From Komagataeibacter saccharivorans (GTDB lineage: Bacteria; Pseudomonadota; Alphaproteobacteria; Acetobacterales; Acetobacteraceae): a stretch of DNA of 64,000 bases. The notes under the pieces are model-generated. The model was not told the DNA's origin. It saw nothing but the letters and a program-made list of their open reading frames with translations, and did not search any database. Each line of letters begins with the position of its first letter. The first letter of the stretch is position 1. The stretch spans positions 1 through 64,000 of the forward strand of contig NZ_NKTY01000013.1 of assembly GCF_003207825.1 (NCBI RefSeq), in the 5' to 3' direction. The position numbers were made by a program, and so were the translations under genes. This document shows positions 51,447-63,461 of this stretch, in pieces.

Positions 51447-52160
51447 ATGCAGGTCAAGACCATAATGACATCGCCCGCAATAAGTATAGAACCCACCGAA
51501 ACCATCATGACGGCCATCCGCCTGATGCTGGCGCACAAGATCAGCGGCCTGCCGGTGGTGACATCAAAGGGGGAACTGGTGGGCATCGTCACGGAAAGCG
51601 ATCTTATTCATCGCAGCGAACTGGAAACCGAAGGTGAACATTCCTGGCTTGCGGGACTGTTCCGGTCGGCTGGCAATTACGCCGATGAATATGCCCACAC
51701 GCACGGGCGCAAGGTGGCCGATGTCATGTCGAACGCCCCTGTTTCCATAGCGCCCGACGCGTCCCTGCGCGACGCGGTCGAAGCCATGACCCGGCAGCGG
51801 GTAAAACGCCTGCCGGTGGTCAAAAACGACCATGTTGTAGGCATCGTGGCGCGCGCGGACATATTGCGTGCGCTGCTGCCCGCCATTGCCGATGCATCAA
51901 AAGTTGATGACGATGAAAGCATCCGGCAGGCGATCCTGCGCGAATACCAGAATCAGGACAGGTGGGCGGGCAGGAATCTCATCAACGTACACGTCAAAAA
52001 CGGTATTGTTGAACTGACCGGCGTTGTCATGGATGAACCTTTGCGCACGGCGGCCCGTGTCGCGGCGGAAAATGTGCCTGGCGTCGTTTCCGTCATTGAT
52101 AACATCACCTTCAGCGAACCACTCAGCGATACCATCATCCCCCCGCCCATGTTTCCGTGA
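51447..52160 (+). CDS. CBS-BON domain protein
   Basis: A 237-residue protein with two CBS domains (about residues 8-57, MTAIRLMLAHKISGLPVVTSKGELVGIVTESDLI, and 97-148, AVEAMTRQRVKRLPVVKNDHVVGIVARADIL). A C-terminal BON domain follows (about 155-225, ILREYQNQDRWAGRNLINVHVKNGIVELTGVV). This layout is typical of stress-induced proteins in alphaproteobacteria, with CBS sensing nucleotides and BON possibly binding phospholipid or proteins. It lies 216 bp after the phosphoribosyltransferase, enough for its own promoter, and 12 bp before the next gene. Confidence 0.92.
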   Translation: MQVKTIMTSPAISIEPTETIMTAIRLMLAHKISGLPVVTSKGELVGIVTESDLIHRSELETEGEHSWLAGLFRSAGNYADEYAHTHGRKVADVMSNAPVSIAPDASLRDAVEAMTRQRVKRLPVVKNDHVVGIVARADILRALLPAIADASKVDDDESIRQAILREYQNQDRWAGRNLINVHVKNGIVELTGVVMDEPLRTAARVAAENVPGVVSVIDNITFSEPLSDTIIPPPMFP

Positions 52161-52172
52161 AGGTCAGGACCA

Positions 52173-52607
52173 ATGACTGCGAAACATATCCTTATCATCA
52201 TCGCCGATGGGGAACATGCGCGCTTTGTCCGACCCGCGGCAAATCACAGCCTGCATACCGTTGAATCCTTTGACTCCATATCCGCCCATCAACGGACATC
52301 CGACATTGGCAATGACGCGCCCGGAGCATCCTGTCATACCGGTTCCACCGCCCGTCATGCCCTGAACCCGCATCATGATCCGCACCGAATGGCCATGGAA
52401 TCGTTCGGAAAGTTCGTTTCTGAACAGATCAATGAATGGAGCCGTAGCTACGACAGGCTACTGATCGTCGCGCCACCGCATAGCAGTGCCGAAATCATCC
52501 GTTACCTTGACCCCGCATCCCGAACAAAAGTCATCGATATTGTTCATAAAGACCTTGTCAAAACCCCGGACAATGCGCTGAAGGACCACCTGAATTATAT
52601 TACCTGA
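52173..52607 (+). CDS. Host attachment family protein
   Basis: A 144-residue protein of the host attachment family (PF10116, named after AtsE of Agrobacterium). The opening ILIIIADGEHARFVRPAA and the later YDRLLIVAPPHSSAEIIRYLDP...VIDIVHKDLVKTPDNALKDHL match the baeRF/eRF1-like fold seen in this group. The family name reflects one early report; many members sit with stress proteins and their biochemical role is not settled. It starts 12 bp after the CBS-BON gene and is probably in the same operon. Confidence 0.87.
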   Translation: MTAKHILIIIADGEHARFVRPAANHSLHTVESFDSISAHQRTSDIGNDAPGASCHTGSTARHALNPHHDPHRMAMESFGKFVSEQINEWSRSYDRLLIVAPPHSSAEIIRYLDPASRTKVIDIVHKDLVKTPDNALKDHLNYIT

Positions 52608-52701
52608 TCCGCTCCGCGCCACAGGGCCAATGATACCGCGACCGCAATTGATAAAAAGCGTCTGATCACAGAGGGCGTTTGAAAACAGCAGGCGACGGGT
52701 T

Positions 52702-52734
52702 GGGTACCCTCTACACAGAACATACAGGGTACCC
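52702..52734 (-). terminator. Hairpin after the adenine deaminase-like gene
   Basis: GGGTACCCT (52702-52710) and AGGGTACCC (52726-52734) form a perfect 9-bp stem with a 15-base loop, eight bases after the deaminase stop on the minus strand. The T-tract is weak, so function as a terminator is uncertain. Confidence 0.45.
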
Positions 52735-52742
52735 GCTGCCGA

Positions 52743-53780
52743 TCAACCGATCGCCGCGACGCCTTCGCTCCGGGCGAACGTATCAAGCCGGTCGAGATAT
52801 GCGCGCCGTTCCTCAGCGCCAATCCACGCAGCGTTGAACGCATTGCGGCTGATCGTGACCAGTTCTTCGGGCGTCAGGGCCGCGCCGTCGCGTGCCATTT
52901 TCATGGCCTCGTTCATATACACGCTCTGCATATAACCCGGATCATCGGAATTTATGGTGATGGTCAGACCGGCATCCAGCAGGGCGCGAATGTCCTTTTC
53001 ATTACTGCCGGGACGGATCGCCATGTTGGGGAACGGACAGACCGTGAAGGGAATATGCCGCTCCCGTGCCTGCTGAAGCAGTTCGGGTTTTTCCAGCACA
53101 TTCAGTCCGTGGTCGAGCCGCTCGCTTCCCACGTCCTCAAGCGCCTGACGGATATGTTCATGGGTATTCTGCTGGTCAATGTCGCAATGCATTGTCACAT
53201 GCAGTCCGGCTTCACGCGCACGGCGGAATACATGGGCGAATTTGGCGGGAGGATTACCCTTCTCGTCCGAATCAAGACCTACACCGATAATTTCCGACAG
53301 ATAGGGAAGCGCCTGGGTAAATGTCTCATCGGCTGATTCCGCGCTCATTTCGCGGATGAAACACATGATGAGCTGGGACCGGATGCCAAAATCGCGCTGC
53401 GCATCCGCCCGGGCGCGGCTGATACCCTTTATGACCGTCTCGAATGCAATGCCCCGGCGGGTGTGAAGCTGGGGATCGAAGAACATCTCGGTATACAAAA
53501 CGTTCTGCGATGCGACCTTGTTAAGGTAAGCGTAGCACAGGTCATAAAAATCCTGCTCGGTCTGAAGCAGTTCCACGCCTTCGTAATAAAGAGCCAGAAA
53601 GGAAGGCAGGTCATCGAATACGTAACCGGCGCGAATATCGTCTTCCGTCATGCTCTGGATCGCATGGCCATTGCGGCGGGCGAGGACGATCTTCAGCGCA
53701 GGTTCGAGCGTGCCTTCCAGATGGACGTGAAGCTCCGCCTTGGGCAGGGCTTCAATAAAAGAATCGGAGGCAGACGTCAT
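52743..53780 (-). CDS. Adenine/adenosine deaminase family protein with altered HAGE motif
   Basis: From the ATG at 53780 the protein is 345 residues. It follows the adenine deaminase (Ade/AAH1) branch of the adenosine deaminase family: KAELHVHLEGTLEP with metal ligands His18 and His20, VFDDLPSFLALYY, and the typical MFFDPQLHTRRG. LDHG contains His224 and NSDDP the catalytic and metal aspartates. The metal-ligand/catalytic HAGE motif reads His198-Cys-Asp-Ile (THEHCDID region: MHCDIDQQN), so the usual proton-shuttling Glu is not in place. It may use Asp200 or Asp202, belong to a variant subfamily with another substrate, or be inactive. The frame is open to 53969, but that extension lacks homology. 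Confidence 0.85.
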   Translation of the reverse strand: MTSASDSFIEALPKAELHVHLEGTLEPALKIVLARRNGHAIQSMTEDDIRAGYVFDDLPSFLALYYEGVELLQTEQDFYDLCYAYLNKVASQNVLYTEMFFDPQLHTRRGIAFETVIKGISRARADAQRDFGIRSQLIMCFIREMSAESADETFTQALPYLSEIIGVGLDSDEKGNPPAKFAHVFRRAREAGLHVTMHCDIDQQNTHEHIRQALEDVGSERLDHGLNVLEKPELLQQARERHIPFTVCPFPNMAIRPGSNEKDIRALLDAGLTITINSDDPGYMQSVYMNEAMKMARDGAALTPEELVTISRNAFNAAWIGAEERRAYLDRLDTFARSEGVAAIG

Positions 53781-54081
53781 GATATGAAACCCTTTTTGGT
53801 CGCGAGACAGGTTTCCATCATACACTATCGCAATCGTAATAAAATGGTGTACGTAGCGATCTGGAACCGCAGGGCAAAAGCATTCCATCGAATGGGATGA
53901 AACAGCCGGTGGCGAGAAGGGTATGGGATGGGAAACAGTGGTGTGAAGCTGGCCATCTGCCCCCGGCACCCTGATAATTTACTGCGTACCCAATTAACTA
54001 CGAAATAATACTCAGGGCATTGATAATGCGGTATTGTGTGTAAGCAGGACGCACGGGATATCCCCATAAGGATACGCAATC
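53781..54081. other. Intergenic region upstream of the deaminase gene
   Basis: About 300 bp between the start of the deaminase gene and the end of the DUF4142 gene, both on the minus strand. It should contain the deaminase promoter. No gene or clear terminator was seen. Confidence 0.4.
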
Positions 54082-54615
54082 CTACTGCGGCAGGGAACGT
54101 GCCATCTGCAGATGGTTTTCAAGGGTTGGAAGGGTTTTGGCGGCCCAGGCTTTCAGTGCAGCATTATCCCCGCCTTCCGAATAACGACGGAACAGGGATA
54201 CGGCATCCTCGTGCCCCGAAATCTGGTCCGACCGGTACTGAAGGGCAAAATCCCGACCGTGCAGGGTTTTGAGTTTATCCAGCATGGTCTGGTGGCTCTC
54301 ATCAACCGCTGTGGGTTGATCCGCCTGCAGGTTGTTGCTCTGCACGATACCCTTGAGCGCCGTCGAAGTCGTTTCGTGATCTTCGATCATGCGGGCGGCA
54401 AATGCACCAAGGGCCTGATTGTGGGTCTGCTGGGCCAGTTCGCTCGACTGGATCTCGAACAGGTCACTGATGGTGGCGATCTTGATGAAATCAGCCGTCC
54501 GGGGTGCTACACCCATAAGGGAGTTCACGCCCGTTTTTTCCGGAATGGACTGCGCCAGGACGGGGCCGGACATGCAGACTGCCAGTCCCAGCATTACGAT
54601 CATGCTTTTTTTCAT
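54082..54615 (-). CDS. DUF4142 family secreted protein
   Basis: From the ATG at 54615 the product is 177 residues with a signal peptide (MKKSMIVMLGLAVCMSGPVLA-QS) and a DUF4142 ferritin-like four-helix domain (about residues 35-172). Typical segments are DFIKIATISDLFEIQSSELAQQ and VRxFAxxMIxDHxxxxxxL-like AFAARMIEDHETTSTALKGI. Such periplasmic proteins are common in alphaproteobacteria and often stress-related, but no activity is known. It is on the same strand as the small KGG gene upstream but separated from it by a terminator. Confidence 0.87.
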   Translation of the reverse strand: MKKSMIVMLGLAVCMSGPVLAQSIPEKTGVNSLMGVAPRTADFIKIATISDLFEIQSSELAQQTHNQALGAFAARMIEDHETTSTALKGIVQSNNLQADQPTAVDESHQTMLDKLKTLHGRDFALQYRSDQISGHEDAVSLFRRYSEGGDNAALKAWAAKTLPTLENHLQMARSLPQ

Positions 54616-54799
54616 TGGATATGTCTCCATGCACCTGAAGGCGGCATTGGCATAAAAGTAGGTAGAATATTACTTTCTCTAAACATTACTCATGAAATAA
54701 GGTTCCGGCAGGCAGGGTTTTTATATCCCTGCAATTTCTTACCGGAAAACCCATCGCCATGATGGCGATATGTTCTTTTTATTGTCGTCCCCCCGTAAT

Positions 54800-54829
54800 A
54801 AAAGGGCGGAACCTTTACAGGTTCCGCCC
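54800..54829 (-). terminator. Rho-independent terminator of the KGG protein gene
   Basis: Perfect 10-bp stem GGGCGGAACC / GGTTCCGCCC with loop TTTACA, followed on the minus strand by TTTTATT. It lies seven bases after the stop of the KGG-repeat gene. Confidence 0.9.
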
Positions 54830-54835
54830 CCCGGT

Positions 54836-55144
54836 TCAGCCCTTGTCGTGGTCGTGACTGTGTTGGCCCCCTTTACGGCCGGCTTCTGCGGCGCGCTCCG
54901 GGTTTTCGGCAAAGTTTCCTGAACTGTGCTGGCCGCCCTTGCGACCGGCCTCGGACGCTTTTGCAGGGTCCTGTGCAAAGTTACCCGAGCTGTGCTGACC
55001 GCCTTTTTGTCCGGCTTCGGACGCTTTTTTGCGGTCATTGGCGAAGTTGCCCGGATTATGCTCGGCCCCACCGCCCCCATGGCTGTCTGCGGGCGCCATT
55101 GCGGGAAGGCCGGCATATTCGTGTGGGTAGATACGATAAGTCAT
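54836..55144 (-). CDS. KGG-repeat stress protein (Con-10-like)
   Basis: A 102-residue hydrophilic protein with three tandem copies of a roughly 23-residue unit. Its core reads GNFA-x2-P-x2-A-x-EAG-x-KGGQHS (about residues 32-54, 55-76, 77-98). The repeat is the KGG or con-10 motif also found in E. coli YciG, YmdF and fungal Con-10. These proteins are linked to general stress and sporulation and are probably disordered until bound. The ATG is preceded by AAGGG. The last unit ends in a His/Asp-rich tail. A strong terminator follows. Confidence 0.9.
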   Translation of the reverse strand: MTYRIYPHEYAGLPAMAPADSHGGGGAEHNPGNFANDRKKASEAGQKGGQHSSGNFAQDPAKASEAGRKGGQHSSGNFAENPERAAEAGRKGGQHSHDHDKG

Positions 55145-55836
55145 GATTACTTACCCTTTCGGATGGCAGCGGCTATTTGAGATCCTTGTTATTTCTGACT
55201 TCCCATGGTTCTGGGGTAAGAAAGCGACCTCAACACTGTTCGCTGCGGATAGCTCAACGGAAGGGCTATGGGGTGGTTTCGCATCATCTGCGAAAACAGA
55301 AAATAAAAATAATACGACTTTATGAAATACATATCGAATTCATAATATAAATTAAGAATCGTTCTATTGTTTTATGAGGCGCAATGACCGTTTTCTTTCG
55401 TGCACCGTATGGTGCGTTTGCAAGGAAAGATATGAGGGGACAATATTTCTATTCCATTTTTCTTCCCACTCTCGATCTGTGCAATTACTACTAAAGAAAA
55501 TGGGATGGATTCCGTTAACGCCATCTCTTTGCGTGAACAAATGGCATAAGCAGCACATTTCTTTTCAGACCATCGCAATGCACAAATGCTGTTCCGTATC
55601 AATCAAGGCACAAAAAATTACGGGACAGCGCACCCATCCCCACAGAGGGGAACAGGTGACTATCCCGAATATTCATTCAGATACAGATTGACTTCCGCGA
55701 GACCCACGCCCCGTTCAGGCTGCTATAATGCCACCTGAACAGGGGATGCGCAAACCAGCGGCTGCGGGGCTGTTTGAAAAGTCTGTCCAGAAATCATAAG
55801 GAGGTTTTTACCCAGGATTTCTTTTCAGACGATCCC
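55145..55836. other. Intergenic region, about 690 bp, AT-rich in part
   Basis: Lies between the KGG gene start and the end of the next minus-strand gene. The part 55300-55620 is AT-richer than the flanks. The frame at 55374-55691 (plus, 105 codons, rich in Cys, His and Ser) has no ribosome binding site or family features and looks accidental. The stretch around 55760-55810 resembles nothing I can name with confidence. It could be the scar of a lost mobile element, but no terminal repeats were found. Confidence 0.4.
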
Positions 55837-56172
55837 TTACTGTTCGCCGCTGTCAGAGGGCGAAGGCGTTTTGTTGCCGCCCCGGCTGCTGCGACCTTCG
55901 CTCCCCGGCAGGGTACGATGGGTTCCGGCATTAGCGGGCGGCTGGGTTCCCGGCTGCTCGGATACGGTACGGGGATTGTTCCATAACTTGTCCGACGGTT
56001 CCACCCGCTTGCCGCTGGAAGTGGTGGCCGAAGACGGGCTTTTTCCAACAGCCGAGGCAGCGGAATCTGCTGTCGGCGCGGGTCCGCTGCTCGGTTCTGT
56101 CTGCGCCATCGCCATGGCGGGCACGCTGGCGACAACGGCGGCCAATAATGCGGCATGTATTGTCTTTTTCAT
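55837..56172 (-). CDS. Secreted low-complexity hypothetical protein
   Basis: A 111-residue product with a clear signal peptide (MKKTIHAALLAAVVASVPAMAMA-QT). The mature chain is rich in Ser, Pro, Gly and Ala, with no predicted hydrophobic core and no cysteine, so it is probably a disordered periplasmic protein. I recognise no family. Similar Ser/Pro-rich exported peptides are common in acetic acid bacteria. It is the second of a group of small minus-strand genes with envelope or stress character. Confidence 0.6.
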   Translation of the reverse strand: MKKTIHAALLAAVVASVPAMAMAQTEPSSGPAPTADSAASAVGKSPSSATTSSGKRVEPSDKLWNNPRTVSEQPGTQPPANAGTHRTLPGSEGRSSRGGNKTPSPSDSGEQ

Positions 56173-56357
56173 AATTCAATCTCCTGTCTGGCAAAAATGC
56201 CGTTGTATTTCTAAGGGGCTGAATAGGATGAAGGTTGCATGCTATCTGCGCAGGCCCGGTGCGTGGACAATGGTGTCACGACACACAGGGGCACCGGGCC
56301 GCTACACTTCATGGCCTGAAAACATGCGAAACGCGCTCTGCCGTATCACAGCGCCCG

Positions 56358-56600
56358 TTATGGATTTTTCTCCGGCGGGCGAGAATGCCCGTCGCATTCA
56401 TCCGGGTTCTGCTGTGTACCCTTGTGGCTTGTTTCTTCGACTTTCCTGTCATTGTCGAGTGTGGATTCCGGCTCATCTTCTCCCGCACGGGGACCGCCGG
56501 TTCCGGTGGCTTTCGGGTCCTGTCCACCGGCATGATTGTCCGCGGGGGAAAAGGCGGTACGGTCAGTGCGTGCATGACCATATGCGTGATGCATCATCAT
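56358..56600 (-). CDS. Small very hydrophilic hypothetical protein
   Basis: An 80-residue product (MMMHHAYGHARTDRTAFSP...) with a high content of Asp, Glu, His, Gly, Pro and Thr and almost no hydrophobic residues. It is therefore likely intrinsically disordered. CCGGAGAAAG lies directly before three consecutive ATG codons; the second or third gives the best spacing to GGAG. I know no homologue. The composition resembles hydrophilin-type stress proteins, and the gene stands among other small stress-type genes on the same strand. Confidence 0.5.
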   Translation of the reverse strand: MMMHHAYGHARTDRTAFSPADNHAGGQDPKATGTGGPRAGEDEPESTLDNDRKVEETSHKGTQQNPDECDGHSRPPEKNP

Positions 56601-56769
56601 CTTTCTCCGGTATGTGGGGAAGGAACAGAGCGATAGAGTGGCCTGTTTTTCAACATGCCCAACCTAACGACAGGCGGGCTTGCGGGGTTTCCCTCTTTTT
56701 TGCGCCTATTTTTCAGGGGCAGACCGAAAAACCGGTATGCCGACCGCAGCCGGTCCACCCCGCCGGCCG

Positions 56770-57033
56770 TCAGGAAACGAGCCGATAACCCCGTTTTTTC
56801 CTGTGCCGGACAAGTGCAGCCAGCGCATTTGCCGCCGCGCCTTCATTGGCGTACAGATCCAGTCTGATCCGCCCGGCCGCACCAATCCGGCCCCACCGCC
56901 GCATCAATGCCGCGCCACCGAACAGGTCCGGCTGAATGACCATGGCATAGTAACGCCATTCATTCTTTTGCGGACAGATACGCTGCATGTAGACGCTGAG
57001 CGGAAACAGGGACATCTGGGATGGGGATGTCAT
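56770..57033 (-). CDS. WGR domain protein
   Basis: An 87-residue protein that is essentially one WGR domain: an N-terminal strand region (NEWRYYAMVIQPDLFGGAALMRRWGRIGAAGRIRLDLYANEGAAANALAALVRHRKKRGYR). The signature Trp-Gly-Arg is at about residues 45-47. WGR domains bind nucleic acid and occur in PARP enzymes and in small stand-alone bacterial proteins of unknown role. Start choice (57033 or 57015) is uncertain because no strong ribosome binding site is visible. Confidence 0.85.
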   Translation of the reverse strand: MTSPSQMSLFPLSVYMQRICPQKNEWRYYAMVIQPDLFGGAALMRRWGRIGAAGRIRLDLYANEGAAANALAALVRHRKKRGYRLVS

Positions 57034-57282
57034 GATGGGCGCTTCGTTTCCTGAAACATGCACGGGTTGATTGCGTATATATAGGATGGTTTCAGGACGA
57101 ATTGAACAGAAAGCCACGCCTTTTATCTGAACTGCGCACGATAGTTGATTGAAAACCTGCGGCGTTGCTGTCCCCCGCTTTACCCCCGCCGGTTACAGGG
57201 AACTAATCAGACAGCGCCGTATTGTGTCTGTGCGTAGCGGCTTTCCCCGCAAACGTAACCGGACAGAAGGAGCTGGCGGTAC

Positions 57283-58389
57283 ATGACCTTTCCCTTCGAT
57301 GCCCTGTCAGCCTGCCGCGCCGAACTGGAAGAAGAAGCATCCATCAATGATGCACAGGGCACTTTTCCAGCAGACGGCCTGCGCCGCGTGCGGGAATTGG
57401 GGGGATTATCGGCAGTACTGCCTGCAACACTGGGCGGGTACGGGTTCGGAGATGGCTGTCAGGGGGCAATCGGGCTTTTGCACCTGCTGCGCCTGACAGG
57501 CGAGGGTAATCTTTCACTGGGGCGCATAGTGGAAGGGCACGTCAACGCCATCCGCCTGATCGCCTGTTATGGCACGCCCGAACAGCTCGCCCGCGCGGCG
57601 GCGGATATTCATGATGGTGCCCTGTTCGGCGTATGGGTAACACAGGGCACTGCCCCCGTACGCATGGAACAGACGGGGGACACCATCATACTGCGCGGAG
57701 AAAAAATCTTTGCATCCGGTGTGCGGCAAGTCACGCGGGCGCTCATAACAGCCAGCACGGCTGATGACGCAACCCGGATGATATTGGTGCCACTGGATAC
57801 CGAGCATAATGCGGCCCCCTGTCTGGACGGGATTACCGGCATGCGGGGCGCAGGCGCCGGACGGTATGATTTTACGGGCACGATGGTCCTGTCCGATGCA
57901 CTGATTGGCCAGAGCGGGGATTACCTGCGCCAGCCCGAGTTTTCGGCAGGCGCATGGCGGGGCATGGCCGTGGCCCTTGGTGGCGTCGACCGGCTTGTCA
58001 CCCTTCTGCGCGAACAGTTATGCGCGCGTAACCGGGCGGAAAATCCCAGTCAGCAGGCACGGATCGGCACGGCCCTGATCGCGGCTGAAACCGCCCGGTT
58101 ATGGACATGCAAGGCAGCCCTGATTGCCGCCGGAACCGACGATCATGAAGCCGGGGATGTCGCGGCCACGGTCAATCTGGCGCGGCTTGCGGTGGAAAGG
58201 GCGGGGCTGGAAGTGATCGAACTGGCGCAGCGGGGCCTTGGGCTTTCCGCCTTTGTCAAAACCAATGTCGTGGAACGCCTGATTCGTGATCTTTCCACCT
58301 ATCTGCGCCAGCCTGCCCCGGATGAAACGCTGCTCGAAGCCGCAGAATGGTTTACCCGTCGCAACCTGCCCCAAATGGAGCGCATATAG
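57283..58389 (+). CDS. Atypical acyl-CoA dehydrogenase family protein
   Basis: A 368-residue protein with the overall acyl-CoA dehydrogenase layout: N-terminal helices, a beta domain around DGALFGVWVTQGTAPVRMEQTGDTIILRGEKIFASG, and C-terminal helices including RGLGLSAFVKTNVVERLIRDLSTYLRQPAPDE. The usual substrate-site signature (ITEPxAGSD) is absent, so a classical beta-oxidation role is doubtful. AAGGAG precedes the ATG. Its stop overlaps the start of the PIG-L deacetylase gene (TAGTG), and a methyltransferase and a glycosyltransferase follow. The context suggests oxidation within a lipid or glycan modification pathway. Confidence 0.85.
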   Translation: MTFPFDALSACRAELEEEASINDAQGTFPADGLRRVRELGGLSAVLPATLGGYGFGDGCQGAIGLLHLLRLTGEGNLSLGRIVEGHVNAIRLIACYGTPEQLARAAADIHDGALFGVWVTQGTAPVRMEQTGDTIILRGEKIFASGVRQVTRALITASTADDATRMILVPLDTEHNAAPCLDGITGMRGAGAGRYDFTGTMVLSDALIGQSGDYLRQPEFSAGAWRGMAVALGGVDRLVTLLREQLCARNRAENPSQQARIGTALIAAETARLWTCKAALIAAGTDDHEAGDVAATVNLARLAVERAGLEVIELAQRGLGLSAFVKTNVVERLIRDLSTYLRQPAPDETLLEAAEWFTRRNLPQMERI

Positions 58390-59117
58390 TGAAAGCGGGC
58401 ACCATACATACGGCGCTGCGCAGCCTGCCCGTGGCTCCCCTGTCGGCTGTTGCACCCGGCACGGTCCTGATCCTTGCGCCCCATGCGGATGATGAAAGTC
58501 TGGGGTGCGGGGGGCTGATCGCCGCCTGTTGCGCCGCCGGTCGGCCGCCTGTTGTGGTTATTGTGACCGACGGGGCTGCTTCCCACCCCAACTCCCCCAC
58601 CTGGCCTGCCGATCGCCTGCGGCAGCAGCGGCAGGCGGAAGCCATACGCGCGGTCGAATGTCTGGGCCTGTCGCGACAGCGGATCGGTTTTATGGGTCTG
58701 CCCGATGCCGCCGCCCCCCATAGCGGTCCCGTTTTCGGGCATGCGGTCAGTCAACTGGCACGGCTTGTCGCAACCCATGGCTGTACCACCGTGCTGGCCC
58801 CATGGCGGGCTGACCCGCATTGCGATCATGAAGCTGCGTGGAAAATGGGTGTGGCATTACAGGAGCATTGTGCCATAGCCCTGCTTGCCTATCCCGTATG
58901 GGGCTGGCTGATCCCGGCTGACAGGGAACTGGATCATGACATGCCGGTGGGAATGCGGCTGGATATATCGCCCTATCGCGCGCACAAGGCCCGCGCCATT
59001 GCCATGCATGAAAGCCAGTACGGACACCTGATTACAGACGACCCGACAGCTTTCAGCCTGCCCGAAGACCTGCTGGCGGCACTGAGTTCGGATTTTGAGG
59101 TCTTTGTCAGGCCATGA
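58389..59117 (+). CDS. PIG-L/LmbE family deacetylase
   Basis: A 242-residue protein with the zinc motif of the PIG-L family, ILAPHADDESLGCGGLIA (PHxDDE, about residues 29-34), and a later His in ADPHCDHEA. Family members remove N-acetyl groups from GlcNAc-containing glycolipids, mycothiol or bacillithiol precursors. I chose the GTG at 58389, which overlaps the upstream stop (TAGTG) and has GGAG eight to nine bases before it; the ATG frame opening at 58347 lies within the dehydrogenase gene. It overlaps the methyltransferase start by ATGA, so the three genes are translationally coupled. Confidence 0.9.
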   Translation: MKAGTIHTALRSLPVAPLSAVAPGTVLILAPHADDESLGCGGLIAACCAAGRPPVVVIVTDGAASHPNSPTWPADRLRQQRQAEAIRAVECLGLSRQRIGFMGLPDAAAPHSGPVFGHAVSQLARLVATHGCTTVLAPWRADPHCDHEAAWKMGVALQEHCAIALLAYPVWGWLIPADRELDHDMPVGMRLDISPYRAHKARAIAMHESQYGHLITDDPTAFSLPEDLLAALSSDFEVFVRP

Positions 59118-59734
59118 GTATGACAAGCTGGTCACGTGACGTGTTTGAACGCATATACCGCCACCATCCCGATCCCTGGGGACTTGCCACACGGGTATAT
59201 GAACGTGAAAAATACCGCCAGACGCTGCGTCTGGTGGCCGGCCGGCATTTTCATCATGCGCTGGAACTGGGCTGTGGCATCGGCATGATGACGGCGCAAC
59301 TGGCACGGCAATGCGACCGGCTGGTTGCCGTGGATGTGTCCGAAACCGCCCTTGTGCAGGCACGCCGCCGCTGCGCGGGGTTGGCGGGGGTATCGTTCCA
59401 TCGAGGGCAGCTTCCGCACATGTTCCCGCCGCTGGTGCGGCATGGCTGCGACCTGATCGTTATATCTGAACTGCTCTATTTCCTTTCACCCGCCGATATC
59501 AGCCAGCTTGCTGCGCAATGCCTGTATGTGCGCCGGCATGGCGCGCCCATCATTCTGGTCAACTGGACCGGGCCGACCGATACGCCATGCGATGGCAACA
59601 CCGCCGCCGGGCATTTCATAAACTGTTGCCTCAACGACGGGCTGCTCGTGACCCATGCGCGCCAGTACCCGCAATACCGTATCGATGTACTTAGCGACGC
59701 TACATTCCGCCCGGGGGTGAAGCTGTCGGGATAA
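59114..59734 (+). CDS. NodS-like SAM-dependent methyltransferase
   Basis: A 206-residue class I methyltransferase. The N-terminus HHPDPWGLATRVYEREKYRQTL and the SAM-binding loop ALELGCGIGMMTAQLARQCDRLVAVDVS (about residues 48-75), with the later DLIVISELLYFLSPADI, follow the NodS family pattern. NodS of rhizobia N-methylates the deacetylated glucosamine end of Nod factors. Placement directly after a PIG-L deacetylase fits methylation of a freed amine, but the real acceptor is unknown. The gene overlaps the upstream deacetylase by ATGA. Its 3' end overlaps the convergent glycosyltransferase by 35 bp. Confidence 0.87.
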   Translation: MSMTSWSRDVFERIYRHHPDPWGLATRVYEREKYRQTLRLVAGRHFHHALELGCGIGMMTAQLARQCDRLVAVDVSETALVQARRRCAGLAGVSFHRGQLPHMFPPLVRHGCDLIVISELLYFLSPADISQLAAQCLYVRRHGAPIILVNWTGPTDTPCDGNTAAGHFINCCLNDGLLVTHARQYPQYRIDVLSDATFRPGVKLSG

Positions 59735-60833
59735 GGGAAGAAGACGGGGCGGGAGAGAGCAGTCCACACACGATCCGTTCGGCCATACGGTGCTGCATGG
59801 GCAGATCGGCCCGTTTAACCGGCACATGAACAAGCAGCGGGCTGGCAATTTCCAGCTTCTCCCACGCCATGCCAAAAAAACGCTCCTTCGCCATATGGGC
59901 TACATCCTGCACCCCGACATGCAGGTAATCGGCAAGCTGTTTTTCAGCGGTCATCCGCTCATCCCCTGTTCGGGGTCGTATGCGTAACCGGCGCAGGGCC
60001 GCACTGGCCCGCGCCCGACGCAGGCAGTGCATTGCGGGTTCAAGACTGTCATCCAGCATTTCATCCTGCCGGACCAGGCGGCGTGCCATGGTATCGGCCA
60101 TGCCGCCGCGTGCCCGTCCCGCCGTGCGGCCAGATACGGTTACCGTTACATCCGGCGCATGGCGGATAATGGCGTCCACACGGCGCAAAGCCGCAAGGAA
60201 AGCCCGGTCTTCCCCCAGCGAAAGGGCTGGAATGCCCCCTGCCCGCTGCCAGGCAGACGCACGCACGGCAATGCTGGCGCCGGAATGTTCCGTATGGCGG
60301 GGCCACGGATCATGTGGATCAGGGTCCACCAGATCATGAATATGGTCCAGTAACGTGGCATAAGCGATTTCTGCTGCGTCATCGCGATGGAGATGCGCGG
60401 GGATCAGCAGCGCGTCCATCGGGTCAATCAGGGCGCGCCCGCATACGGCGTCTGCCCCTCTGGCAAGGGAAGCCAGCGTATTGACCAGCCAGTCCGTGGC
60501 GGGAACGGCATCGGCATCGGTCGTGAGCAGCACGCCATCCGGCCCGGCCAGCTCCGCCGCGATTTCCATGGCTTCGCGCCGCGCGGTTCCGGCATGGGCC
60601 ACGTCTGGCGGGTAGAGGCGGGTGGCGATGGAAATACCGAAAGGTAACTGTGCGGCAAGCGCCTGCACACAATGCGCCGTATCATCAGTACAGTTGTTGA
60701 GCAGAAGGACGGCATGGGTAAGACAGGCCCGCTGCTGGTCTGCAAGGGCGCGCAGGCATGGGCCGATACGCTCCGCTTCATTACGCACAGGAATAGCCAC
60801 GACCAGTGGACAGGGAAACCGGACGAGAGGCAT
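59700..60833 (-). CDS. Family 2 glycosyltransferase
   Basis: A 377-residue GT-A protein. The N-terminal nucleotide-sugar domain is VVAIPVRNEAERIGPCLRALADQQ (about residues 11-34), with a DxD-type motif in LLTTDADAVPATDWL (about 103-117). An acceptor segment with LGEDRAFLAALRRVDA follows, and then a helical C-terminal region of about 130 residues. Such enzymes move a sugar from UDP- or GDP-sugar to a lipid, glycan or protein acceptor. AAGGTG lies six bases before the ATG. It is convergent with the dehydrogenase-deacetylase-methyltransferase operon and overlaps it at the 3' end, so it is likely part of the same pathway though separately transcribed. Confidence 0.87.
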   Translation of the reverse strand: MPLVRFPCPLVVAIPVRNEAERIGPCLRALADQQRACLTHAVLLLNNCTDDTAHCVQALAAQLPFGISIATRLYPPDVAHAGTARREAMEIAAELAGPDGVLLTTDADAVPATDWLVNTLASLARGADAVCGRALIDPMDALLIPAHLHRDDAAEIAYATLLDHIHDLVDPDPHDPWPRHTEHSGASIAVRASAWQRAGGIPALSLGEDRAFLAALRRVDAIIRHAPDVTVTVSGRTAGRARGGMADTMARRLVRQDEMLDDSLEPAMHCLRRARASAALRRLRIRPRTGDERMTAEKQLADYLHVGVQDVAHMAKERFFGMAWEKLEIASPLLVHVPVKRADLPMQHRMAERIVCGLLSPAPSSSLIPTASPPGGM

Positions 60834-61294: not shown

Positions 61295-63247
61295 TTAAAC
61301 ACCATCCTTCAGGGAACCAAGCCCTTCAAGAAGCGGGCGAAGCGTTTCATCATCGGGACGCCAGCGCCCGATTGCATTACGGTAAATCGGGTTTCTGACC
61401 TGTTCCATACTGGATGTCCTGACCGGACGGGTGGACTTATGGAAATCCAGACAGGCCTCATCCCATTCCAGTCCACAATACGCGATGATGCACCGTGCGC
61501 TGGCCTCAAGGTTTTCGACTACATCTTCGTAACGCACATCCAGCATGGCGCCAGCGGGCAGCACCTTGCGCCAGTGTTCCATCAGTTCATGATACTGGCG
61601 ATAACGGCGGCCCAGTTCGCCCAGATCGAAAGAGAATTCCTGCGTATTGAATGGAATTGAAAAGCAGGAAAGGCAGGTGTCCACCGGGTCACGCATCGTA
61701 TGAATAATGCGTGCATTCGGCCATAACTGGTGAATCAGGCCGATATACAGGTAATTGCCCAATGTCTTGTTGGTAATACGCTGTGGCGGTTCATCCCCCG
61801 TCCAGTCGACAACCCGCGCGTTCAGCCGCTGAAGATAGTCTTCGGCCACTGCAAACCGCTCGGCTTCCGTCAGATGCGCAAGGGGGGCAACCGTTTTCCA
61901 CGCCGGAAACTGTGTGGCCGCATCCCTGAATGTATCAAGCAGGGTACCGACTTCGCCCGCCGCATAAACCGCAGGGTGACGCGCCAGTATCTGTTCAACC
62001 AGTGTCGATCCCGATCGTGGCATGCCAACAATGAAAATGGGCTGGGTCGATGAATGGCCGGTCCGGGCCAGACCGGCTATCGCTTCCGTCGAAAAAAGCT
62101 CGCGCATCTTGCGCATGCCTGCGAATACCCGCTTTTCATCATACTTAATATGGCGACGGCGCAGCGCATTGCCCTGCTGGATATGGGCGAAAGAGCGCTG
62201 GTGTTCGCCAATATCCGACAGCGCCTTGCCCAGCGCGAAATGAATATCGGAACGTTCCTTATCCGGCAGGGATGTGGCGTTATCCGCCGCCAGTTTCTGC
62301 ATGACCGGCAGAACCGGATCATCGGCGGCAAGTTTTGCAAGGCGTGTCAGACATAAATAATACCGCGCACGGTCCGGGGCCAACGCAATGGCACGACGGA
62401 ACCCCTGTATCGCTGCCTCAATCTGCCCGGTTTCCTGCAACACGGCGGCCACGGCGGCATGTGCCGCGGCCTCATCGGGTTTCAGGGTCCGGGCCTTTTT
62501 GAAATGATGCAGCGCTTCGTTATGCCGGCCGTTCTTATGCAGCAGCTTTCCCAACTGCATATGGACCGTATAACTGTCGGGACGATGCGCCAGCAGGGCA
62601 CGATAACAGTCTGCTGCCCTGTCCCTGCGTTCCATATCGATCAGAAGCGCGCCAAGATCGAGGGTGGTTTCAACATTATCGGGGGCATATGTCAGGGCCT
62701 GCTCGAACTGGCTCGCTGCCTCCTCATATCGACCCGTGGCCTGTAGGGCCTTGCCCAGTTTGTTTATGGTGGCAATATCCGTGGGGTTGCTGACCAGTAT
62801 TTCCCGGTAGCGGCTGATATCCGCGTTATGCCCGTCAATTGTAAGAATCATCCGATAGGCGGCGATCGCCCCGGCCTGATCGCCGCATCCGCTCAGCGTG
62901 TCGCCCAGATTGACAAGGGCCGCGCGATAATGCGGCGCCAGTTCAAGCGCCCGACGGAACGCGGCTACGGCTTCTTTCATATGGTCTGCCTGCCGCAGGG
63001 CCAGCCCAAGGGTATTAAAGCCTTCCACATTCCTGGGCATATGCGCCAGAGCACGCCTTAACAGAGGTATGGCTTTTTCCGGCCATCCATGCCGGGCATA
63101 TAATGTACCCAGAAAGTATAGCGCATCCATCTGGTCAGGATTTTTGGCCAGCATGCCTTCATAAAGCTGCATGAGACTGGTGGTGTGCGCGTCCTGCTGG
63201 TCCGCAGGCCCGGAAACCGGACTGTTGGATAAATGAGTTTCCTGCAT
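61295..63247 (-). CDS. TPR-repeat sulfotransferase family protein
   Basis: About 650 residues from the ATG at 63247. The N-terminal half is an array of roughly eight to nine TPR units (about residues 25-330, for example VEGFNTLGLALRQADHMKEAVAAFRRALELAPH). The C-terminal half is a sulfotransferase domain with PAPS-binding loop PIFIVGMPRSGSTLVEQILARHP (about 405-427) and a later 3'-phosphate-binding segment (ARIIHTMRDPVDTCLSCF). Members sulfate proteins, peptides or glycans, as in tyrosylprotein sulfotransferase-like enzymes. The acceptor is unknown. The frame is open to 63289 and the start is uncertain. No PAPS-synthesis genes are in the window. Confidence 0.87.
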   Translation of the reverse strand: MQETHLSNSPVSGPADQQDAHTTSLMQLYEGMLAKNPDQMDALYFLGTLYARHGWPEKAIPLLRRALAHMPRNVEGFNTLGLALRQADHMKEAVAAFRRALELAPHYRAALVNLGDTLSGCGDQAGAIAAYRMILTIDGHNADISRYREILVSNPTDIATINKLGKALQATGRYEEAASQFEQALTYAPDNVETTLDLGALLIDMERRDRAADCYRALLAHRPDSYTVHMQLGKLLHKNGRHNEALHHFKKARTLKPDEAAAHAAVAAVLQETGQIEAAIQGFRRAIALAPDRARYYLCLTRLAKLAADDPVLPVMQKLAADNATSLPDKERSDIHFALGKALSDIGEHQRSFAHIQQGNALRRRHIKYDEKRVFAGMRKMRELFSTEAIAGLARTGHSSTQPIFIVGMPRSGSTLVEQILARHPAVYAAGEVGTLLDTFRDAATQFPAWKTVAPLAHLTEAERFAVAEDYLQRLNARVVDWTGDEPPQRITNKTLGNYLYIGLIHQLWPNARIIHTMRDPVDTCLSCFSIPFNTQEFSFDLGELGRRYRQYHELMEHWRKVLPAGAMLDVRYEDVVENLEASARCIIAYCGLEWDEACLDFHKSTRPVRTSSMEQVRNPIYRNAIGRWRPDDETLRPLLEGLGSLKDGV

Positions 63248-63461
63248 TGACACGCCCATCCCGCAATAAAAGCACCCTGCGGCCACCATCCGGCCCGATC
63301 TGTTACGATCAGTCGGATACAGCCCACGCTGATTTTATAGGACAGGTTCCCCGCCCGGCCAATGCCCCGGCGGGCTGGACACAATTATACACAGGCAGGA
63401 AAATCAGGCCGCTGCCGATCCCCATAATATACGGATCACCCTATATGATATGTTGCCTGAA

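What the first reader, a model, noticed from the sequence alone, without database searches (positions are those of the whole stretch)
57283..60833. Coupled gene set: atypical acyl-CoA dehydrogenase, PIG-L deacetylase, NodS-like methyltransferase and convergent GT2
Three genes overlap as one translational unit (TAGTG and ATGA junctions), and the fourth overlaps the third tail-to-tail by 35 bp. The enzyme logic (glycosyl transfer, N-deacetylation, N-methylation, acyl-chain oxidation) echoes Nod-factor chemistry, where a deacetylase and NodS act in sequence. This cell need not be a symbiont. The dehydrogenase lacks the usual acyl-CoA site signature. A small uncharacterised glycolipid or aminosugar modification pathway is a reasonable hypothesis and the best candidate in the window for an undescribed system. 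Family assignments are from motifs I can read; the pathway is inference.
Basis: partly seen in the sequence, partly recalled or inferred. Interest (0 to 1): 0.72.

Follow-up and report, generated by a model that had tools for sequence, protein, structure and literature searches.

The report
Conserved four-enzyme aminosugar-tailoring gene module
Four neighbouring genes in a vinegar bacterium form a tightly linked enzyme set that is kept together in many bacteria, often beside stress-survival genes, and probably makes a chemically modified amino sugar that has not yet been described.

Summary
Three genes overlap or abut (57283-59734, + strand) and a GT2 gene overlaps the third tail-to-tail by 35 bp. 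It is not a local accident. In 397 sampled Pseudomonadota genomes the four subfamilies co-occur about ten times more often than chance and mostly sit within 6 kb of one another. Of 128 loci holding the dehydrogenase-like gene, 96 hold all four, including Nostoc; Deinococcus has three. Their sequence divergences correlate (Mantel r 0.73-0.88). In one genome the deacetylase and methyltransferase are fused.

The 'acyl-CoA dehydrogenase' has neither ACAD signature (0/55) nor the catalytic Glu at its usual position. Its profile, and less clearly its predicted fold, lie nearest flavin monooxygenases (DszC, MsuC; also the sugar N-oxygenase KijD3). The best reading is aminosugar tailoring: glycosyl transfer, N-deacetylation, N-methylation, then flavin oxidation, possibly at nitrogen, not acyl-chain chemistry. 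Neighbours in several lineages (Ku/LigD, catalase, trehalose genes) suggest a stress product. The Nod-factor parallel is only chemical. The product is unknown and no describing paper was found. This is an undescribed pathway built from known enzyme families.

The parts
57283..58389 (+). ACAD-fold flavoprotein, 368 aa; predicted flavin-dependent oxygenase/oxidase rather than acyl-CoA dehydrogenase
   Evidence: profile best hits DszC 3.7e-28, MsuC, KijD3; AlphaFold2 pLDDT 95.9; TM 0.87 DszC, 0.86 MsuC, 0.80 SCAD; no PS00072/PS00073 match; Pro at the position of the catalytic Glu
58389..59117 (+). PIG-L family Zn-dependent N-deacetylase, 242 aa; the only PIG-L match of this kind in this genome
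   Evidence: PHxDDE and HxxH motifs conserved; nearest solved: TT1542 and diacetylchitobiose deacetylase
59114..59734 (+). NodS-related class I SAM methyltransferase, 206 aa; predicted N-methyltransferase on the freed amine
   Evidence: 4isc 4.8e-62; NodS 3ofj 2.2e-29
59700..60833 (-). GT2 glycosyltransferase, 377 aa, convergent with the methyltransferase (35-bp overlap); predicted to make the glycosidic bond
   Evidence: DxD D106/D108 and E208/D209 invariant; AlphaFold2 pLDDT 94.4; GT-A fold: PcManGT, TarS, hyaluronan synthase

Best explanation
The four genes encode one small biosynthetic pathway that builds and decorates an amino sugar. The GT2 enzyme attaches an N-acetylated sugar to an acceptor. 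The PIG-L enzyme removes the acetyl group. The NodS-like enzyme methylates the exposed amine. The ACAD-fold flavoprotein oxidises the product, most likely as a flavin-dependent monooxygenase acting at or near that nitrogen, as KijD3/DnmZ-type sugar N-oxygenases do, rather than as an acyl-CoA dehydrogenase. The product is probably a soluble or cell-envelope glycan made under stress or in stationary phase. Shown: gene identity, conserved linkage, co-divergence, fusion, loss of the ACAD catalytic signatures. Inferred: substrates, order of steps, N-oxidation, stress role.
For: Co-occurrence in 397 genomes: ACAD+methyltransferase in 31 genomes against 3.0 expected, 31 of 31 within 6 kb; ACAD+PIG-L 31 against 3.2, 28 adjacent; ACAD+GT2 25 against 2.4, 21 adjacent. 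96 of 128 loci complete. ACAD-PIG-L-MT is co-directional nearly everywhere while GT2 moves: 58 loci A P M with GT2 opposing, 19 A P M G, 17 G A P M. Mantel r 0.73-0.88 over 60 non-redundant loci, 0 of 2000 permutations. PIG-L/MT fusion in L076. In G086 and G200 the set is split into ACAD+MT and PIG-L+GT2 elsewhere in the same genome, so linkage is not only positional. Flavoprotein profile ranks DszC, MsuC, TdsC and KijD3 above SCAD, and TM-scores show the same tendency. PIG-L is nearest chitobiose and sugar deacetylases. Extra GTs and sucrose-phosphate synthase-phosphatase flank some loci. Stress neighbours: Ku/LigD, KatE, TreY/GlgX/MalQ, and KGG in the window. Four flavin reductases exist elsewhere in the genome.
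Against: No substrate, product or mutant is known. The flavoprotein also lacks the DszC-type HDP motif, and SCAD structures score almost as well in the fold search, so oxygenase activity is not established. No flavin reductase lies in the block. KijD3 ranks below DszC and MsuC, so N-oxidation is one option among S-, C- or N-oxidation. Stress neighbours occur in a minority of loci: LigD 15, TreY 9 and KatE 5 of 128. A general-stress (EcfG-type) promoter pattern was found upstream of only 6 of 128 ACAD genes and not upstream of the window's block.
Confidence: 0.5

Rival explanations
1. Nod-factor-like glycolipid pathway: GT2, deacetylase and N-methyltransferase build a short aminoglycan and the dehydrogenase introduces a double bond into an acyl chain.
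For: Deacetylase plus NodS-family methyltransferase plus GT2 in one block; the flavoprotein is ACAD-fold.
Against: No acyltransferase in the block; NodS equivalog score 70.8 against cut-off 300; ACAD signatures and usual catalytic Glu absent from the family; the species range (Acetobacteraceae, Deinococcus, Nostoc, Methylobacterium) is mostly non-nodulating. NodA was not found in the genome, but the control was silent.
Confidence: 0.1
2. Stress-protectant oligosaccharide: the GTs extend sucrose, trehalose or a related primer into a small oligosaccharide whose amino sugar is deacetylated, methylated and oxidised, giving a compatible solute for desiccation or oxidative stress.
For: Sucrose-phosphate synthase-phosphatase and further GTs flank L058, L076 and L078; Ku-LigD-block-GlgX-TreY-MalQ order in L048 and a similar trehalose island in L051/L054; TreZ, MalQ, TreY and GlgX fall in an rpoS mutant of P. 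fluorescens (PMC6372562); KGG stress protein, DUF4142 and CBS-BON in the window.
Against: Sucrose synthesis genes are in only 3 loci and trehalose/glycogen genes in about a dozen; in the window no such gene adjoins the block. No transcription data.
Confidence: 0.2
3. The block decorates an existing envelope polysaccharide, EPS or lipopolysaccharide with a modified amino sugar.
For: The GT2 fold resembles TarS/TarP and hyaluronan synthase; extra GTs in a group of loci (L058, L073, L075, L076, L078, L079, L161).
Against: No flippase, polymerase or export genes belong to the conserved set.
Confidence: 0.15
4. The ACAD-fold protein is a non-enzymatic or DNA-associated stress protein (AidB-like) carried along with a sugar operon.
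For: Ku/LigD neighbours in 15 of 128 loci; signatures for ACAD catalysis lost.
Against: It is the member most tightly linked to the methyltransferase (31 of 31 adjacent) and keeps a dense set of invariant residues (E84, H86, W118, R301, R342, Q343), as expected of an active site.
Confidence: 0.04

Closest known systems
Nod factor synthesis (NodC GT2, NodB deacetylase, NodS N-methyltransferase)
   Same: Glycosyl transfer, N-deacetylation and N-methylation in sequence; the methyltransferase belongs to Pfam NodS and is nearest 4isc and NodS among solved structures.
   Different: PIG-L instead of NodB-type deacetylase, no acyltransferase in the block, an ACAD-fold flavoprotein added, NodS equivalog cut-off not reached, mostly non-nodulating hosts.
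PIG-L/MshB/BshB and diacetylchitobiose deacetylases
   Same: Zn-binding PHxDDE and HxxH motifs, sugar N-deacetylase family; profile matches 8bgn 4.9e-24, MshB and BshB1.
   Different: Far below the BshB1 (48 of 182.5 bits) and MshB cut-offs; a distinct subfamily tied to this block.
ACAD-fold flavin monooxygenases (DszC, TdsC, MsuC, and sugar N-oxygenases KijD3/DnmZ)
   Same: Best profile and top-tier fold matches; no ACAD catalytic signature.
   Different: 18-19% identity, no HDP motif at the C-terminus, own invariant RQ motif; activity untested.
Aminosugar steps in mycothiol and bacillithiol synthesis (GT then PIG-L deacetylase)
   Same: GT followed by PIG-L deacetylation of a GlcNAc product, yielding stress metabolites (established knowledge).
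   Different: GT2 rather than GT4; methyltransferase and flavoprotein instead of Cys ligase (and acetyltransferase).

Membership tests
Acyl-CoA dehydrogenase (canonical) | PROSITE signatures PS00072 and PS00073 | tested here: not met
   0 of 55 family members, window protein included; 6 of 9 other ACAD-superfamily matches carry them
Acyl-CoA dehydrogenase (canonical) | Catalytic Glu in the C-terminal (I/L)(Y/L)EGT motif | tested here: not met
   Aligned position is Pro (or Ser/Cys in the diverged branch) within the conserved LRQ-P/S/C motif
Acyl-CoA dehydrogenase (canonical) | Pfam domain scores above gathering cut-offs | tested here: inconclusive
   N-terminal 23.6 against 22.9 met; middle and both C-terminal models below cut-off
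Group D (ACAD-fold) flavin monooxygenase | Sequence/fold nearest to DszC, MsuC or nitrososynthase | tested here: met
   Profile top hits are DszC, MsuC, TdsC; TM 0.87 and 0.86 against 0.80 for SCAD, though E-values are similar
Group D (ACAD-fold) flavin monooxygenase | DszC-type C-terminal HDP motif | tested here: not met
   Present in two DszC-like proteins of the comparison set, replaced by RQP/RQS here
Group D (ACAD-fold) flavin monooxygenase | Reduced-flavin-dependent oxygenation | not testable with these tools
   Needs purified protein; flavin reductases do exist in the genome
PIG-L N-deacetylase | Pfam PF02585 and zinc-site motifs | tested here: met
   76.7 bits against 28.2; P31-H32-x-D34-D35-E36 and H144/H147 conserved
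NodS nodulation methyltransferase | NCBIfam NodS equivalog NF041650 cut-off (300 bits) | tested here: not met
   70.8 bits; the broader Pfam NodS family is met at 60.4 against 24
GT2 glycosyltransferase | PF00535 and DxD plus ED motifs | tested here: met
   36.0 bits against 23.3; D106, D108, E208, D209 invariant
Nod factor biosynthesis system | NodA acyltransferase encoded | tested here: inconclusive
   No NodA match in the genome, but the family rang in none of the control genomes

The most novel reading that the evidence does not exclude
A widespread, undescribed stress-associated pathway makes an N-methylated, N-oxidised (hydroxylamine, nitrone or nitroso) amino sugar glycan outside antibiotic producers, using an ACAD-fold sugar N-oxygenase of a new subfamily.
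Probability: 0.2. Interest if true: 0.85.

Novelty: new variant of a known kind. Interest (0 to 1): 0.6.

Why it matters
The same four enzymes are kept together, fused or co-diverging across Acetobacteraceae, Methylobacterium, Ancylobacter, Bradyrhizobium, rhodobacters, sphingomonads, Deinococcus (three of the four together) and Nostoc, yet no paper describing the set was found. A conserved unknown metabolite is likely, and its genes sit beside DNA-repair and desiccation-protection genes in several lineages. It would also correct an annotation: genes filed as acyl-CoA dehydrogenases and NodS would be sugar-tailoring enzymes. The question can be tested directly by knockout plus metabolomics.

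Tried and rejected
Literature: ten full-text searches for the gene combination, LmbE/NodS/PIG-L synonyms, stress regulons and Gluconacetobacter found no paper on the set; the library holds only open-licence papers, so this is not proof of absence. Anti-phage defence: PADLOC gives only one methyltransferase hit to a mad2 model, taken as generic methyltransferase similarity and rejected. General-stress promoter: GGAAC-N16-18-(C/G)GTT upstream of 6 of 128 ACAD genes against 0.8% background, none upstream of the window's block, and the GT-side hits are probably coding; treated as inconclusive. The ~400-aa N-terminal extension of the Deinococcus ACAD looked like a glycoside hydrolase by eye, but Pfam and PDB gave no match, so no claim is made. 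The TPR-sulfotransferase next to GT2 was considered a fifth gene but was found in no other species' locus.
Full report
OBSERVATION. The window's assembly (3.35 Mb, 107 contigs) is a Komagataeibacter by inference: two K. saccharivorans plasmids carry the PIG-L gene at 99% protein identity. In strain JH1 the block lies on a 222-kb plasmid. The methyltransferase start is uncertain by six bases, because NCBI chose the second ATG in JH1.

FAMILIES. Pfam and NCBIfam support PIG-L, NodS-family methyltransferase and GT2; the ACAD assignment is marginal. The methyltransferase's best solved match is 4isc, then NodS. PIG-L is nearest TT1542 and diacetylchitobiose deacetylase. The GT2 model is confident (pLDDT 94.4) and has a GT-A fold related to PcManGT, TarS and hyaluronan synthase, but this does not settle the donor.

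IS THE LINKAGE REAL? Profiles built from seven to nine block members were run over the same 397 evenly drawn Pseudomonadota genomes. The ACAD-like subfamily forms a clear group (32 genomes, E below 1e-30) separated from ordinary ACADs. Pairwise co-occurrence is about ten times expectation (Fisher p 1e-28 to 1e-39), and 21 of 25 up to 31 of 31 co-occurring pairs with the ACAD lie within 6 kb, against fewer than 0.1 expected. The seeds were chosen because they carry the block, so the profiles favour block members, and the tool's first look misses some diverged copies (for example G235 and G247, recovered). Neither can create adjacency. Plasmid records add Bradyrhizobium, Limimaricola, Sulfitobacter, Sphingomonas, Deinococcus and Nostoc. 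Of 128 loci with the ACAD-like gene, 96 hold all four genes. Gene order ACAD-PIG-L-MT is nearly fixed, usually with 4-nt overlaps, while GT2 is opposing, downstream or upstream. Distance matrices of the four proteins correlate at r 0.73-0.88 over 60 non-redundant loci; part of this reflects shared species history. L076 has a single ORF joining PIG-L and methyltransferase. In G086 and G200 the set is split between two places of the same genome.

THE FLAVOPROTEIN. Neither ACAD signature is present in any of 55 members, and the position of the canonical catalytic Glu holds Pro, or Ser/Cys in diverged members. By eye, the alternative isovaleryl-CoA dehydrogenase position also appears to lack Glu (the aligned stretch reads GAWR; from memory of that enzyme, not tested). 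The 55-row profile ranks DszC (3.7e-28), methanesulfinate monooxygenase and TdsC first, then KijD3 (1.5e-19) beside SCAD (9.9e-19). The AlphaFold2 model (pLDDT 95.9) has TM 0.87 to DszC, 0.86 to MsuC and 0.80 to SCAD, with similar E-values. Group D monooxygenases share the ACAD fold and include N-hydroxylating enzymes (PMC6165268); flavin-dependent N-hydroxylases as a class accept amino sugars (PMC7347517). Oxygenase function is therefore favoured but not shown, and the DszC HDP motif is missing too. The family's own invariants (E84, H86, W118, K141, R301, R342, Q343) point to a distinct active site.

CONTEXT. LigD is found in 15 loci, TreY in 9, KatE in 5, sucrose-phosphate synthase-phosphatase in 3, and a shared set of extra glycosyltransferases in 6-8. 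In P. fluorescens the TreZ/MalQ/TreY/GlgX genes depend on RpoS (PMC6372562). The window's own neighbours include a KGG stress-repeat protein, DUF4142, a CBS-BON protein and a WGR protein. The stress link is suggestive: it rests on a minority of loci, and the promoter test was inconclusive.

MECHANISM. Most likely: GT2 transfers an N-acetyl sugar; PIG-L deacetylates it; the NodS-like enzyme methylates the amine; the flavoprotein oxidises the product, possibly at nitrogen. The sequence of steps and the product are inferred. The genome has four flavin reductases that could supply reduced flavin and no other match to this PIG-L profile.

VERDICT. A real, conserved and apparently undescribed four-enzyme module. 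The novelty lies in the combination and in the flavoprotein subfamily, since each component family is known.

Noticed in passing
window 51447-57117: Stress-themed neighbourhood: CBS-BON protein, Host_attach/baeRF-like protein, DUF4142, KGG stress-repeat protein, WGR protein.
   Followed up: partly
window 61295-63289 (-): TPR-sulfotransferase next to the GT2 gene; among the fetched loci found only in K. saccharivorans.
   Followed up: partly
L167-L170: Proteins of about 1000-1200 aa with an internal methyltransferase domain of this family, followed by GT2 and ABC-exporter-like genes, in genomes G128, G093, G266 and G332.
   Followed up: no
L012:5690-8029: Deinococcus radiodurans block ACAD carries a ~400-aa N-terminal extension with no Pfam or PDB match.
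   Followed up: partly
L051:7808-8569, L054:8020-8787, L082:11333-12238, L085:12308-13123: A second, diverged PIG-L gene sits after GT2 (or after the methyltransferase in L085) in these stress-island loci.
   Followed up: no
L135, L143, L144, L147, L159, L160: Methylobacterium-group loci with the ACAD-like gene alone, several followed by a cytochrome-b-like gene; a possible second role of the family.
   Followed up: no
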